This document shows positions 31,448-64,000 of a DNA stretch of 64,000 bases, piece after piece. How positions within the stretch are numbered: position 1 is the stretch's first letter; each line of letters begins with the position of its first letter. Made by a program: the position numbers and the translations under genes. The notes beneath the pieces were generated by a model, which saw only the letters and a program-made list of their open reading frames with translations, did not search any database and was not told where the DNA came from. The stretch comes from Planoprotostelium fungivorum (taxonomy: Eukaryota; Evosea; Variosea; Cavosteliida; Cavosteliaceae). The stretch spans positions 186,001-250,000 of the forward strand of contig MDYQ01000004.1 of the NCBI GenBank assembly GCA_003024175.1, read 5' to 3'.

Positions 31448-31759
31448 GTGATGATGTCGAGATGACTCGATGGTGTTCGTCGATGATGTCATGCTTAGAT
31501 GATGAAGATTGATCGTGGCGTGAACGACGAGACATTGACGTGGCTCCATTTTCGACAGGTTACCGAAGTATCATCAATCGAACTTATGCATGAACAGTAT
31601 CCCGTGCCTTCGAGCTGTGGGTCACTTTTTGCACTACGAGTGATTTTTCCTCGTTGTTTGTATATAATCGTTTCTAGACGACTATCTTACATTTTCGGGT
31701 CTTTTGATCATTTGAACGGTGGACGAAAGTCAGCTTCAGTGCAATGCTGAATTCATCCG

Positions 31760-31983
31760 TGTAAGAGGCACCTTCGCAAGCTCCGGTGTTGACCCTCTCA
31801 CCCGAGAGAAAAATTAATTTAGTCGGATGCCCTGGAGTACCCAGGGCTATCAGTCGACTAAACTGATAAGAACAGATACTACACTGTTTTCGAGTCAGAA
31901 ATCCTGATGAGTGATGATGATGTGTTATGGTGAAGAGAAATCGCAACCGTACCTTGATCTAAGCTTTAAAAAGCCGAGAAGAT
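31760..31983 (-). ncRNA. U2 spliceosomal snRNA gene, split by an intron
   Basis: On the minus strand, exon 1 (31983-31953) is the U2 5' end: ATCTTCTCGG, a stem-loop I built on GGCTTTTTAAAGC, and TAGATCAAG. Exon 2 (31883 downwards) starts TGTAGTATCTGTTCTTATC and continues AGTTTA, identical to the near-universal U2 branch-point-pairing region. Stem IIa follows (TATCAGT...ACTGATA), then stem IIb (GCCCTGG...CCAGGGC), a U-rich Sm-type site (AATTAATTTTTC), and two 3' hairpins (CTCTC...GAGAG; CACC...GGTG around about 31770-31790). The 3' end is estimated at about 31760. The exons lie 69 bases apart (31884-31952). Joined, they give a normal U2 of about 155 nt. U2 pairs with intron branch points in the spliceosome. 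It is probably a Pol II transcript, but no promoter element is assigned. Confidence 0.88.
31884..31952 (-). other. 69-nt spliceosomal-type intron inside U2 snRNA
   Basis: The insert begins GTACGG after AAG and ends AAAACAG before TGTAG, so it follows the GT-AG rule with an AAG donor context. A branch-point-like TTTCTGACTCG lies about 12-15 bases before the acceptor, as in many protein-gene introns here (for example TTGACTCGTTGTAG at 11437-11473). Its position is between the bases equivalent to human U2 G31 and U32, immediately 5' of the GUAGUA branch-pairing element. Confidence 0.85.
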
Positions 31984-32712
31984 GCTTCCTGGGGTGCCCG
32001 CATAATCAGGTCACCGTGAAGTTGACCGCAAAAAATTGTGGGTTTCCCTCCGCCTTCCGAACGGTCCGGGGACACCTGCAACAGCGTTAGAAAGAGTTAT
32101 AGACACTCTGAAAGGTCAGTGTGAGTACATGGTAATGCATATAATCGAAATGTTAAATGGATGTGGATCGAGGAAAAGAATGGATGGATAGGAGTCAGTG
32201 GATCTACTAGTCGATTGGTAGAGGTTGAGAGTCTCGAGAGGGAGGATCGATGGAAAATGGAAGAGCTGAAGGTAGGAAGATATGCAGACATACTCATACC
32301 CTATTGCTCTTGCCTTGGTCTAAGACAAGTCGAGGCGGAAGGAGGTCCCTTTTTGAAAAATGAAAATTTTTCGCGCGCGCATCTCTTTTACAACACTTCT
32401 AAATCGATAAGAGCAGACCTTTTTGACTATTTATTACCTCGAACTGAACCAACCTCAGTAAGACCGTCAACCACTCTCGATATGTTCATCATTTAGGAGG
32501 TGGCAACCTGATCAATACGTTGCAGCACTGGTGGTGTACACCGTGAATCCGATCATGCCTACTTATCGATAGTATTCCAACACTATTCACAATACATATA
32601 CAGAGTAGATGAAGGTCAAAATCCTCCGTGATCACAGTTTGCTGGAAAATTAAATTCAATCACCGAAATCAATTTCTCATCTCATCACATCGGCAGCATC
32701 GCATCTTCATTG
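31984..32712. other. Upstream of U2; unassigned
   Basis: The stretch adjoining 31983 should contain the U2 promoter, but I cannot name an element. Plus-strand open stretches (for example 32161-32496) have no domain. An A/T-rich patch with GCGCGCGC follows at about 32360-32380. Confidence 0.3.
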
Positions 32713-38295: not shown

Positions 38296-38490
38296 AGGAG
38301 AACGAATACAAGTTGTGATGCACCAAGTGATGATGTCTCATCGTGTCTGAACATCTGTGACTATACACCACATCCATCTGTTGTGACTTCGCGTCCTATC
38401 AGATCGAATCAATCTACAACGAGGCGAGAAAAAAAGTTAAAATTTTGCTTTGAAGTGGATATCGCATAAACAGAGGAAGAAGAGCAGCAG
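38296..38490. other. Intergenic before 5S rRNA
   Basis: It contains the end of the GH31 transcript and the 5' flank of the 5S gene, with one ATCTACAACGAG word at 38411-38422. A CATAAA sequence lies about 25 bases before the 5S start. Nothing else is seen. Confidence 0.3.
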
Positions 38491-38605
38491 GTAGGATCAT
38501 ACCTATCAGACAACCTTCGATCCCATGCCGAACTCGAAATGTAAGCTGATGTGGGCGAGGCCAGTACTAATGTGGGAGACCAATTGGGAAGCCCCCGTGT
38601 CCTAC
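38491..38605 (+). rRNA. 5S ribosomal RNA
   Basis: This 115-nt RNA has the closing stem GTAGGA/TCCTAC, the loop B/C region CGATCCCATGCCGAACTCG, the internal A box around TAAGCTGATGTGGGCGAGGC, the C box TGTGGGAGACC, and a run of five T directly after the gene. The arrangement and length are normal for a cytosolic 5S rRNA transcribed by RNA polymerase III. It stands alone and not in an rDNA unit. Confidence 0.93.
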
Positions 38606-38610
38606 TTTTT
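38606..38610 (+). terminator. Pol III terminator of 5S rRNA
   Basis: Five T residues directly follow the closing stem of the 5S gene. Confidence 0.85.
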
Positions 38611-58714: not shown

Positions 58715-61700
58715 ATGAAGTCAACAGGCCTCCTTCTGTTGGCCCTCGTAGGTGAGACTGATTACGACTCGTACTTCGACATCGATTGAACATCTTAGGT
58801 CTTTCTGCGGCTGTAGACGTTCCGCCCATCTCGACTGACAAGCCAAGCTTTCCCACTGTGAGACGCAGCACCACATCGTCATGTATTGAAGAGTTTATAG
58901 GTGGAATGTGGAGCCGCACCTGGTCCCCTATTTCGAAATTTGAAGGGTCCTTTCCCCACTGTAAGCATGTCTTTCGAATCATCCACACATTAACTCTTTG
59001 TAGAATGCCTGGTGGAATGGTCTCGGTGTTGGAGATCAGAAATCGTGGGTCCATCCGAATCTTTTACCCATCCTAACTCCAATCTCTCAGATACATCGCC
59101 GGTCCATTTCCATTCCAAGCTCAGGCCGCTCCTTCAGGTATTCCATCCCATATCCATTCGGATCCATCTGATGTTCTTCAGGTGTGACCTTCGGCCTCCC
59201 TCAGAACAGAGATTTCGATGGTACCTCCGTTCACATGCCTTACAAGCCGGAGCTCTCTGTCGGACCTGCTGAGCTGTTCACTTCGACTGACCTCAACACC
59301 TACACTGCCACAGCTTTCGATGAGCTGTCAGTGACACTGCAATGGACATCGAACGGCAACACGTTCACTTCTTACTTGGTGCAGGGCAGTCCTTATCTAA
59401 CCTTCGAGGTACGTAACGGTCTCCACGATTCATGTTCTCATCATCTCTCACATTCATCTCTCCATCATCGGGCGTTCTGTCCATCTCTTCATCATCACCA
59501 TGTTGATCTGTTCGCAGTTCGCAGGTCTCAAACCTCAGATCACGGCGCAGAACAAAGACGCCTTCGTCTCGGTCAACGGACAGACTGTCGGTAACACGAC
59601 CACCGCCTCCAAATTCAAGGTACGTCACCCCCCCTCTTCCATCTACAACGCGACAGGTGGTGACGCAGAACGGACTCACTTGGCTCGTCTATGTCCTCTC
59701 TGGCCCTGTCAGCCTCACTACCTCAGCTCAGTCTCTGACAGTCAGCTCAGCGTACAAGGGAGCAGTGCGAGTGGCCAAGCTGAAGGAGGCAGCTGACGAG
59801 TCAGTGCTGGACAAGTACATGTCAGTGTATGCAAAGAGCGCGCAGGTGACATACCAAGTGAGCAACGATGTGGCCACAGTGCAGTACAAGTTCAACACCA
59901 ACGGTACCGGAAGCCTCTTAGTGCTGACGTGGCCTCACCACAGAGATCAATTGTCCGGCTCGACCAAGTATCAGCCTCTGCAATACCTGACGATCAAGGG
60001 ATACATGAAAGGTGAGAATGTGATGATCCACTGGATTAACGTATCGTAGCTGTGGAGGCCAATCCTCTTGTCTTGACTCTTCCCTTGACGAGCATCAAGT
60101 GGACACCCAACAAGCCCATCGATCCTTCTTGCAGTCAAGAGCTGCAGAAGAGCTTAGAGTACGAAGTCAACCACGCCACTTCGAGCTTTCCCAACGTAAG
60201 TTCCTCGGATCTTCCACGGCTCCTCCGTACCATCTATCAGCTACTGACTCCGACAGGACATGTACTTCTGGGGTGGCTCTTTCGGTCGACTGGCCAGACT
60301 CGCTGCCATCGCCGATCAAGTTGGGCGTCAGGATCTATTGAACACCATCTTGAACGTTCTTCGTGATTCCTTCGAGCCTTGGTTGAACGGAAAGGCGGGA
60401 AGTCCGGCAGCATACGAGACGAGATGGGGTGGTATCGTGTCCAGCCAAGCCGCAACGAACCCCGGTCAGGATTTCGGCAACGGCTACTACAACGATCACC
60501 GTGAGAACAGAATGCAGACATCGAGCCGTGAAGAATGACGAGAGACAGACTTCCACTATGGCTACTTCTTGTATGGCGGGTCAGTGCTGGGCAAGTATGA
60601 CTCTGCATGGCTGGCGAGAGCGAAGCCATTCCTGCAGTCGCTGGCACGTGACATCGGAAATCCGTCACCAAAGGACCCTTTCTTCACTGTCACCAGGTGA
60701 TCAAATTTCCATTGACTTTTCGACTGACATGTTGTACAGACACAAGGACTGGTACGCAGGTCATTCGTGGGCATCTGGTGTTGCGAACAACGCTGGTAAC
60801 AGAGATGAAGAATCTACCACGGAGGCCGTTAACGGCTACTACGGTCTCTACACTTTCGGTCTCGTCACAAACGATCAGAACCTCATCGACTTTGCTCGTC
60901 TCTTGCTGGCCACAGAGATCCATTCGAACAGAAGATACTGGCATCTGAAGGATGACACAAACGATCCAGCTTACCCCGAAAAGGGATACAGAGATCTTGC
61001 TACCGCGGGTAATCTCATGAGTGATTCTTCTGGACAGTGGCTGTGAGTACGAGTCGTGGAGATATCATACGTGTGACGTCATCGCGTGGATACTGATTGT
61101 CGTATAGATGGTGGGGCAACCAGAGACTAGAGATCGCTGCCATCCAGATCTTGCCTCTCACTCCCATCACTGAAGAAGTGGTCGATGCTGTGTGGGGTCC
61201 AGCCATGTATGCATACAGTGCAAAGGAGTTCAACGATCCTAGCGTGGCTGACGACTGGAGGAGTGTCATCTATGCAGCTCATGCCACATGGGACCCTGTT
61301 GCAGCTTACAAGGTCAGCGACGTATGTTGACAGTTCTGGCTGAAGCATCGCAGGAAGCAGCCACGCTGTCAGCTTGGGGCTCTGGCAACTCAAACACGAA
61401 CACACTGCACTTCATTGCCACACGTGGTACAAACGGCATCTGCAGCTCAGCAGGCGTTCCCACACCTCCAACAGACGTTTTCGTCACTCTTCTCAGCAAG
61501 TCCACCGGCCAATACCTAGATGGTGGTTCTACCCCCAAAGCCAAGGGTAAGATGTCGTACGAAGACATCACATCTGATGACGTCATCAGTCGCGGCGGCC
61601 CAGGCTGGCAAGTACAAGATCCAGTGGATGCCCGGAGGCTTCACCGTGGTCTCCCAGACAACCGGTAAGTACGTATCCGGTGGCAACGGAGGTACCGTCA

Positions 61701-62446
61701 CCGCTGGTTCAGCCGAAGCAAAGGGATGGGAATCCTTCCAGGTGAAATGTCACATCCGATATCGTGACGTCTGACGCGTTGTATAGTTCAAGCAAGTGGG
61801 ACAGTACTGGGCCATCGTTGCCAACAGCAACAAGATGTACGCTGAGGTACAAGCTGATGGAACGCTCAAGACCACCGCTGGCTCGGCCACTGACGCCACT
61901 CTGTTCACCATCAGCTCCGATGGATCTGTTCCCACCACCACTGCCGCTCCCACTTCAAAGTCCACCACTGCCATTCCCACCTCCTCCAAGCAGAGCACAA
62001 CGACCAAGTTGAGCACGACCACGGCCGCCCCTGCACCCACAAGTGGAAATCTGACCGGCAGCAACTACTTCTACATCTCTTCCAAGTCCGCCGGTCTCTA
62101 CCTCACTTCCAGCGCTACCGATCAGTACGTCAGAGTCAACGGAACGAGACAGCAGGCGACTCGATATCTGGTAGCGGCCATACAAGGAAAGGACAACTTG
62201 TTCTCTGTTCAAGACGTCAAAACCTCTCAGTACGTCTGCGCTGACAGCAACGGAGATCAGCCTCTCATCGCCAACCGAGGAAGCCCTTCTGGCTGGGAGT
62301 CTTTCTCTTTCGAGAAGCAGGGACAGTACTGGGCCATTCGTGCGGACGATAACAAGAAGTACGTGGCTGTCCAGAGTGACAAGAGAACGCAGGCTACTTC
62401 AGACAAGGTGCAGGACTCTGCCTTGTGGACTCTTACCTCCGCTTAA
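58715..62446 (+). CDS. Secreted GH81 endo-1,3-beta-glucanase with C-terminal beta-trefoil repeats
   Basis: It has about 950 residues and some 16 introns. The signal peptide is MKSTGLLLLALV and GLSAA. The GH81 catalytic core follows: NAWWNGLGVGD, VTFGLPQNRDFDGTSVHMPY, DMYFWGGSFGRLARLAAIAD, and the catalytic glutamate region EESTTEAVNGYYGLYTFGLV, with HKDWYAGHSWASG just before. Two repeats of a beta-trefoil-like module (VTLLSKSTGQYLDGGSTPKA; YFYISSKSAGLYLTSSATDQ; GWESFSFEKQGQYWAIRADD) are separated by a Thr/Ser/Pro linker. They resemble fascin/CBM13-type glycan-binding folds. GH81 enzymes cut beta-1,3-glucan of fungal walls or (1,3)-glucan cyst walls. All recognisable catalytic blocks are present. 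The next gene copy is a broken duplicate. Confidence 0.9.
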
Positions 62447-62689
62447 TTCGTAGTGCACGACACGATTATCACGTTGGGAGACCAACAATAAACCATTTGA
62501 AATGGAAGACCGTGGATTGAAATCTCTTTTATCTTCCATTGCCGGAAGTTTTCGTGGTTTTCTGTGGAGACCCCACGGCGCCAACAAGGGAGGCCATACG
62601 TTCTTGTGACGCCTTACGAAATACTGGGGAGTCTTAATGACCACGAGGATCGTAATGGGTCAGACGGTCAACAATCTCACCACCCATGA
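62447..62689. other. Spacer between GH81 and its broken copy
   Basis: It contains the poly(A) signal AATAAA at about 62487 of the GH81 gene, about 40 bases past the stop. No gene is seen. Confidence 0.4.
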
Positions 62690-64000
62690 GGTTAGTTCGC
62701 AGGCCTCAAACCTCAGATCACGGCAAGATCTGTCAATGGTGAGGCCATCGGTAACACCAAAACTGCCTCCAAGTTCAAGGTGCATTACCCTCCCTCTTCC
62801 ATCTATAACGCGACAGGTGGTGACGCAGAACGGACTCACTTGGCTCGTCTATGTCCTCTCTGGCCCTGTCAGCCTCACTACCTCAGCTCAGTCTCTGACA
62901 GTCAGCTCAGCGTACAAGGGAGCAGTGCGAGTGGCCAAACTGAAGGAGGCAGCTGACGAGTCAGTGCTGGACAAGTACATGTCAGTGTATGCAAAGAGCG
63001 CGCAGGTGACATACCAAGTGAGCAACGATATGGCCACAGTGCAGTACAAGTTCAACACCAACGGCACCGGAGACCTTCTCGTAATGACGTGGCCTCACCA
63101 CAGAGACCAGCTGTCACGTACAACCAAGTATGTTGCTTTACAATACTTGACGATTAAGGGATACATGAAAGGTGAGAATGTGTGATGATCCACTACTGGA
63201 TTAACGTATTGCAGCTGTGGAGGCCAATCCTCTTGTCTTGACTCTTCCCTTGACGAGCATCAAGTGGACACCCAACAAGCCCATCGATCCTTCTTGCAGT
63301 CAAGATGACATCGGTAATCCGTCTCCACAGGATCCCTTCTTCACCGTTGCTAGGTGATCGAATTTCCATCGACTTTTCGACTGACAGGCTGTACAGACAC
63401 AAGGACTGGTACGCAGGTCTCTCCTGGGCATCTGGCGTACCATATAACGGTGCTTTCAGAAACGAGGAGTCCACATCGGAGGCCGTCAATGGATACTACG
63501 GTCTCTACACTTTCGGTCTCGTCACAAACGATCAGAACCTCATCGACTTTGCTCGTCTCTTGCTGGCCACAGAGATCCATTCGAACAGAAGATACTGGCA
63601 TCTCAAGGACGACACGAATGATCCAGCTTACCCGAGAAGGCTTACAGAGATATGGCTACAGCTGGTAATCTCCTGACCGATTCTTCTGGACAGTGGCTGT
63701 GAGTGAAAGATATCGAGATCAAATGGATCCATGAACTTCTTATGAAATAGATGGTGGGGCAACCAGAGACTAGAGATCGCTGCCATCCAGATCTTGCCTC
63801 TCACTCCCATCACTGAAGAAGTGGTCGATGCTGTGTGGGGTCCAGCCATGTATGCATACAGTGCAAAGGAGTTCAACGACCCTAGTGTGGCTGACGACTG
63901 GAGGAGTGTCATCTATGCAGCTCATGCCACATGGGACCCTGTTGCAGCTTACAAGGTCAGCGACGTATGTTGACACTTCTGGCTGAAACATGGCAGGAAG
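62690..64000 (+). pseudogene. Partial tandem copy of the GH81 gene, runs off the window
   Basis: From about 62690 the sequence repeats the GH81 gene from about 59520 onwards and is almost identical over 62815-63060 (versus 59655-59900), introns included. The signal peptide and first exons are absent. At about 63303 the segment equivalent to 60135-60652 is missing (TTGCAGTCAAGA joins TGACATCGG), which removes the DMYFWGG helix region. The glutamate block is kept (EESTSEAVNGYYGL), but a one-base loss near 63635 (ACCCGAGAAGG versus ACCCCGAAAAGG) breaks the frame soon after. The copy continues to the window end. It is a recent local duplication, non-functional as it stands. Confidence 0.85.

What the first reader, a model, noticed from the sequence alone, without database searches (positions are those of the whole stretch)
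31760..31983. U2 snRNA gene interrupted by a spliceosomal-type intron beside its branch-pairing element
Seen: the minus strand carries two clear halves of U2 snRNA separated by exactly 69 bases that start GTACGG, end AAAACAG, and contain a CTGAC branch-like word 12-15 bases before the end. Removing them restores GATCAAG next to TGTAGTATCTG, the nearly universal U2 order. Established: mRNA-type introns in snRNA genes are rare (U6 in fission yeast and some other fungi; U1, U2, U5 and U6 in the yeast Rhodotorula hasegawae). Inference: U2 from this locus would need a working spliceosome, hence U2, to mature, a self-dependent loop. The position, next to the bases that touch the branch point, suits insertion by reverse splicing of a lariat intron into U2 RNA while it sat in the spliceosome, followed by reverse transcription.
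Basis: partly seen in the sequence, partly recalled or inferred. Interest (0 to 1): 0.95.

Follow-up and report, generated by a model that had tools for sequence, protein, structure and literature searches.

The report
Intron inside a U2 snRNA gene
A gene for U2, one of the RNAs that cut introns out of other RNAs, is itself split by what looks like a 69-base intron next to its working site, so making U2 here may need U2 that already exists; one yeast is known to do this, but this organism looks more like an amoeba than a fungus.

Summary
On the minus strand two halves of U2 snRNA (31983-31953 and 31883-~31714) are separated by exactly 69 bases (31952-31884). Removing them restores the order seen in both uninterrupted U2 genes I could fetch. 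The insert looks like this genome's predicted introns: GTACGG 5' site, CTGAC branch word 11 bases before a CAG end, ordinary length. Of 127,840 69-mers in the window it alone carries the full set of signals. U2 helices are kept, some by compensatory changes, and an Sm-type site is present, so this is probably not a decayed copy. Rfam's call misses the interruption and sets the 5' end inside the insert. Best reading: a spliceosomal intron in a working U2 gene. The kind is already in print: a U2 intron in the yeast Rhodotorula hasegawae (seen only as a citation). The host may be new: gene content and a DUSE-like word 60 bases upstream suggest an amoebozoan rather than a fungus (inference). Splicing, U2 copy number and the reverse-splicing origin could not be tested, for want of genome and RNA reads.

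The parts
31953..31983 (-). U2 exon 1: 5' domain with stem I (UCU-GGCU...AGCU-AGA) and the GAUCAAG segment that in other species pairs with U6 (recalled); the exact 5' end is predicted, not mapped
   Evidence: (7 stem I pairs kept in 3 of 3 sequences, one by a C-G to U-A change)
31884..31952 (-). 69-base insert, predicted spliceosomal intron: GTACGG 5' site, CTGAC branch word, CAG 3' site
31894..31898 (-). CTGAC branch-like word; 11 bases follow its A up to the 3' end of the insert
31714..31883 (-). U2 exon 2: UGUAGUAUCUG with the branch-pairing GUAGUA, stem II region, Sm-type AAUUUUU, stems III and IV; the exact 3' end is not known
32036..32043 (-). ACCCACAA, DUSE-like word; its first base lies 60 bases before the predicted U2 5' end

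Best explanation
This is a working U2 snRNA gene interrupted by one ordinary major-class (GT-AG) spliceosomal intron of 69 bases between U2 positions 31 and 32 (numbered on the uninterrupted L001 U2), one base before GUAGUA. Shown from sequence: both halves, exact restoration, intron signals like those predicted elsewhere in the window, and U2 helices kept. Inferred: transcription from a DUSE-like promoter, removal of the 69 bases by the existing spliceosome, and therefore U2 production that depends on U2 made earlier unless an intact copy lies elsewhere. The host is most likely an amoebozoan (inference).
For: Exact removal restores GATCAAG|TGTAGTATCTG, unbroken in the two other U2 genes fetched (L001; L002/L003, contig ends joined). 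The 5' site scores above 53 of 185 predicted window introns; 159 of 185 are shorter. CTRAY with its A 8-14 bases before the end occurs in 53 of 148 introns of 14 Pfam-matched models but at 4 of 461 exonic YAG sites, last exons left out. Of 127,840 window 69-mers one carries the combined signals, and it is the insert. Consensus folding of the joined exons with two other U2s gives 54 pairs, 20 of them with a double-sided change in at least one row. The stem II part (31883-31795) folds better than 200 of 200 shuffles. U2 lies between two gene models that are on the other strand.
Against: No transcript, junction read or second genome was available. GTACGG is weaker than the local GTGAGT consensus: most of the 185 predicted introns score higher. 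The intron set comes from my own gene finder, seeded with general splice preferences, so the comparison is partly circular. Rfam's own alignment treats the insert tail as the 5' domain. Only two outgroup U2s were found, both in contigs binned as bacteria. Of the 54 consensus pairs several are broken in one row, partly through misalignment. Exon 1 with 7 upstream bases and the 3' part fold no better or only modestly better than shuffles (z -0.29 and -1.65), and the best fold of the stem II part shows IIb with a IIc-like helix, not IIa.
Confidence: 0.88

Rival explanations
1. A dead or minor copy: intact U2 genes elsewhere make all the U2, and this interrupted copy is a relic.
For: snRNA genes tend to be multicopy (PMC5832005 says so in passing). 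No genome was held to count copies.
Against: Some helices are kept by compensatory changes, an Sm-type site is present, a DUSE-like word lies at -60, and the 21-base conserved core is undamaged.
Confidence: 0.12
2. U2 begins at 31915 as Rfam draws it; the upstream half is a stray duplicate and there is no intron.
For: Rfam aligns model positions 1-192 to 31915-31714.
Against: That 5' domain lacks GATCAAG and has non-standard stem I pairs. Similarity of the insert tail to the window's own exon 1 is at chance: 51 of 161 introns and 774 of 2000 shuffles do as well. The upstream half has the conserved 5' words in order.
Confidence: 0.03
3. The insert is an assembly or sequencing artefact.
For: Reads were not available.
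Against: It carries correctly spaced intron signals at the exact restoring register.
Confidence: 0.02
4. The host is a fungus (for example a basidiomycete yeast), so this repeats the published fungal cases.
For: All snRNA introns I know of are fungal (recalled). A GH17-X8 protein and a GH81 protein would suit a fungus (the link to fungi is recalled).
Against: A BAR-RhoGEF-RhoGAP-LIM protein, PAN-GH31, GH81 with fascin domain, long leucine-rich-repeat proteins (read by eye), a DUSE-like word at -60 and a 5S rRNA unlike the fungal ones I recall point to an amoebozoan; none of these is a sequence match to a named organism.
Confidence: 0.25

Closest known systems
mRNA-type intron in the Rhodotorula hasegawae U2 snRNA gene (Takahashi et al. 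1993, MCB 13:5613; title seen in the reference list of PMC2586383; paper not held)
   Same: A spliceosomal-type intron in a U2 snRNA gene.
   Different: Host there is a basidiomycete yeast; here probably an amoebozoan. Positions could not be compared because the paper was not readable.
mRNA-type introns in fungal U6 genes (Tani and Ohshima 1989, 1991; Canzler 2016; citations, one passage of PMC10484740)
   Same: mRNA-type intron in a spliceosomal RNA, near its catalytic bases in fission yeast; a reverse-splicing origin was proposed.
   Different: U2, not U6; presumably a Pol II rather than a Pol III transcript.
Introns in fungal U3 snoRNA genes (PMC5832005, passages read)
   Same: Spliceosomal intron in the functional 5' part of a small structured RNA, mostly GT-AG, average branch-to-end distance 15.
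   Different: U3 is not part of the spliceosome, so there is no self-dependence.

Membership tests
U2 snRNA (RF00004) | Score above the Rfam gathering score | tested here: met
   85.9 bits against 46, with a misplaced 5' end; the joined exons could not be scored by Rfam here
U2 snRNA (RF00004) | Branch-pairing GUAGUA in UGUAGUAUCUG, stem I, stems II-IV, Sm-type site | tested here: met
   one search gives mixed support for the single parts
U2 snRNA (RF00004) | Continuous GAUCAAG-UGUAGUA | tested here: not met
   interrupted by 69 bases in the DNA; continuous once they are removed
Major-class spliceosomal intron | GT-AG ends, 5' site, branch word and spacing like the host's other introns | tested here: met
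   the comparison introns are predictions
Major-class spliceosomal intron | Removed from the RNA by the spliceosome | not testable with these tools
   no RNA data
Minor (U12-type) intron | RTATCCTT 5' site and TTCCTTRAC branch word (motifs recalled) | tested here: not met
   insert has GTACGG and CTGAC; none of the motif hits lies in it
Group I or II self-splicing intron | Ribozyme core of hundreds of bases (recalled) | tested here: not met
   69 bases; no such family among the cmscan matches in the window
Fungal snRNA introns | Fungal host | tested here: inconclusive
   gene content and the upstream word point to an amoebozoan, without a match to a named genome

The most novel reading that the evidence does not exclude
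An amoebozoan whose only functional U2 gene carries a spliceosomal intron beside the branch-pairing bases: U2 made there needs inherited U2, and snRNA introns arose independently outside fungi at the part of U2 that faces the intron.
Probability: 0.35. Interest if true: 0.82.

Novelty: new member of a known kind. Interest (0 to 1): 0.62.

Why it matters
An intron in U2 makes the splicing machinery a product of itself and marks a site where introns can enter spliceosomal RNA. A case outside fungi would show that this is not a fungal oddity and would give an independent test of the reverse-splicing model of intron gain. It also shows that an Rfam search can hide such an intron, so more may be overlooked.

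Tried and rejected
Insert tail as a degenerate duplicate of the U2 5' domain (suggested by the Rfam fit and by alignment A2): at chance against window introns and shuffles. A parent intron in the window: best score 55 against 185 introns, which 0 of 50 shuffles reached (highest 54); but against the whole window the insert scores 55 and 56 on the two strands and shuffles (5 per strand) reach 55 and 58, so there is no clear source. A special pairing between the branch word and GUAGUA in the unspliced RNA: the local fold does not show it and is no better than shuffles (z 0.05). Interrupted U2 in viral contigs: pattern scans gave 0, 1 and 1 matches, and the unbroken 18-mer gave 1; no Rfam family reached its gathering score in these three loci, so I take them as chance and did not follow them further. 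A longer U2 core gave 0 in viral contigs. The first gene-finding run overcalled introns (535) and was replaced (185).

Full report
What is there. The minus strand carries a U2 5' domain (31983-31953), 69 bases (31952-31884), and the rest of a U2 (31883 to about 31714). The conserved words of both halves are unique in the window. Rfam finds U2 at 31915-31714 with 85.9 bits but draws its 5' end inside the insert; that fit lacks GATCAAG and has non-standard stem I pairs, and the insert tail resembles a U2 5' domain no more than other introns do.

The outgroups. One scan of genome contigs for a 24-base U2 core gave three loci on two contigs: L001, and L002/L003, two stretches of one contig whose outer ends overlap in 55 identical bases. 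Both contigs sit in bacterial bins but hold U1 beside U2, so I take them as eukaryotic contaminants. In both, GATCAAG runs straight into TGTAGTATCTG. Removing the 69 bases gives the window the same order. On L001 numbering the insert lies between positions 31 and 32, one base before GUAGUA.

Is the insert an intron of this genome? A simple gene finder, seeded with general GT-AG and branch preferences (so not wholly independent), gave 25 models, 20 of them above its score cut with 185 introns. I scanned 17 models against Pfam, two of them in part: 14 matched a family and 3 did not. The 14 matched models (two of them below the gene finder's cut) hold 148 introns: median 46, range 35-129, 22 of 148 at 69 or longer, 120 of 148 ending CAG, 9 of 148 starting GTACG. 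CTRAY with its A 8-14 bases before the end is in 53 of 148 introns but at 4 of 461 exonic YAG sites (last exons were left out of that control); the U2 insert has CTGAC at 11. So two thirds of the introns lack that strict word, and the insert is among the better ones. Its 5' site scores above 53 of 185 introns, below most of the rest. In 127,840 window 69-mers, 505 have GT-AG ends, 65 also R at +3 and G at +5, and 1 also YAG and a spaced branch word; that one is the insert.

Is the U2 alive? Folding the joined exons with the two outgroups gave 54 consensus pairs, 20 with a change on both sides in at least one sequence; some pairs are broken, partly because the three rows align poorly in stems II and III. 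Seven stem I pairs are kept in 3 of 3 rows, one through C-G to U-A. The stem II part folds better than 200 of 200 shuffles (z -3.98), as IIb with a IIc-like helix rather than IIa; exon 1 with 7 upstream bases (z -0.29) and the 3' part (z -1.65, 12 of 200 shuffles as good) do not stand out. An Sm-type AAUUUUU follows stem II. The unspliced RNA would keep 69 bases between GAUCAAG (pairs with U6, recalled) and GUAGUA, which I expect to be incompatible with function (inference).

Promoter. ACCCACAA starts 60 bases before the predicted 5' end. Dictyostelid ncRNA genes carry DUSE about 60-63 bases upstream, written [AT]CCCA[AT]AA in PMC3188802 (passages; also PMC7919456, passages). The window word matches 7 of 8 of that form, and 8 of 8 of the form (A/T)CCCA(C/T)AA that I recall. 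The recalled form occurs 6 times in the window, chance 6.5; the published form with up to one mismatch occurs 131 times, chance 136. The word is thus common; only its place is notable, and that the element exists outside dictyostelids was not tested.

Host. No genome is held. Pfam shows BAR-RhoGEF-RhoGAP-LIM, PAN-GH31, GH81 with fascin domain, CLU, cofilin-type (best solved chains: glia maturation factors), homeodomain and CRAL-TRIO. I did not match the window to any named genome, and a fungus is not excluded.

Known work. [quoted passage not shown] The literature searches on this point listed no paper whose title or shown abstract start describes a snRNA intron outside fungi; one search listed 15 of 39 papers, and the library holds open-licence papers only, so this is weak. 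Verdict: a new member of a known kind, with an unusual host if confirmed.

Noticed in passing
31714-31915: Rfam's search hides the intron by fitting its tail as the U2 5' domain; interrupted snRNA genes may be missed this way elsewhere.
   Followed up: partly
58715-63973: A GH81 glucanase model followed by a model with a partial near-repeat of it on the same strand (read by eye), as in a recent tandem duplication.
   Followed up: no
38489-38608: A 5S rRNA gene (86.5 bits) standing alone between protein gene models, in sequence unlike the fungal 5S that I recall.
   Followed up: no
28966: RTATCCTT on the minus strand close to the start of a glia-maturation-factor-like gene model, like a U12-type 5' splice site; TTCCTTRAC occurs nowhere in the window.
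   Followed up: no
L001 1-5648: Contig in a bacterial MAG that holds U2, U1, 5S and three histone 3' stem-loops, presumably an animal contaminant.
   Followed up: no
L002 and L003 (contig CAKZGI010000061.1): Contig in a Trichormus MAG with U1 and a U2 split over its two ends, which overlap by 55 bases: perhaps a eukaryotic tandem unit.
   Followed up: no
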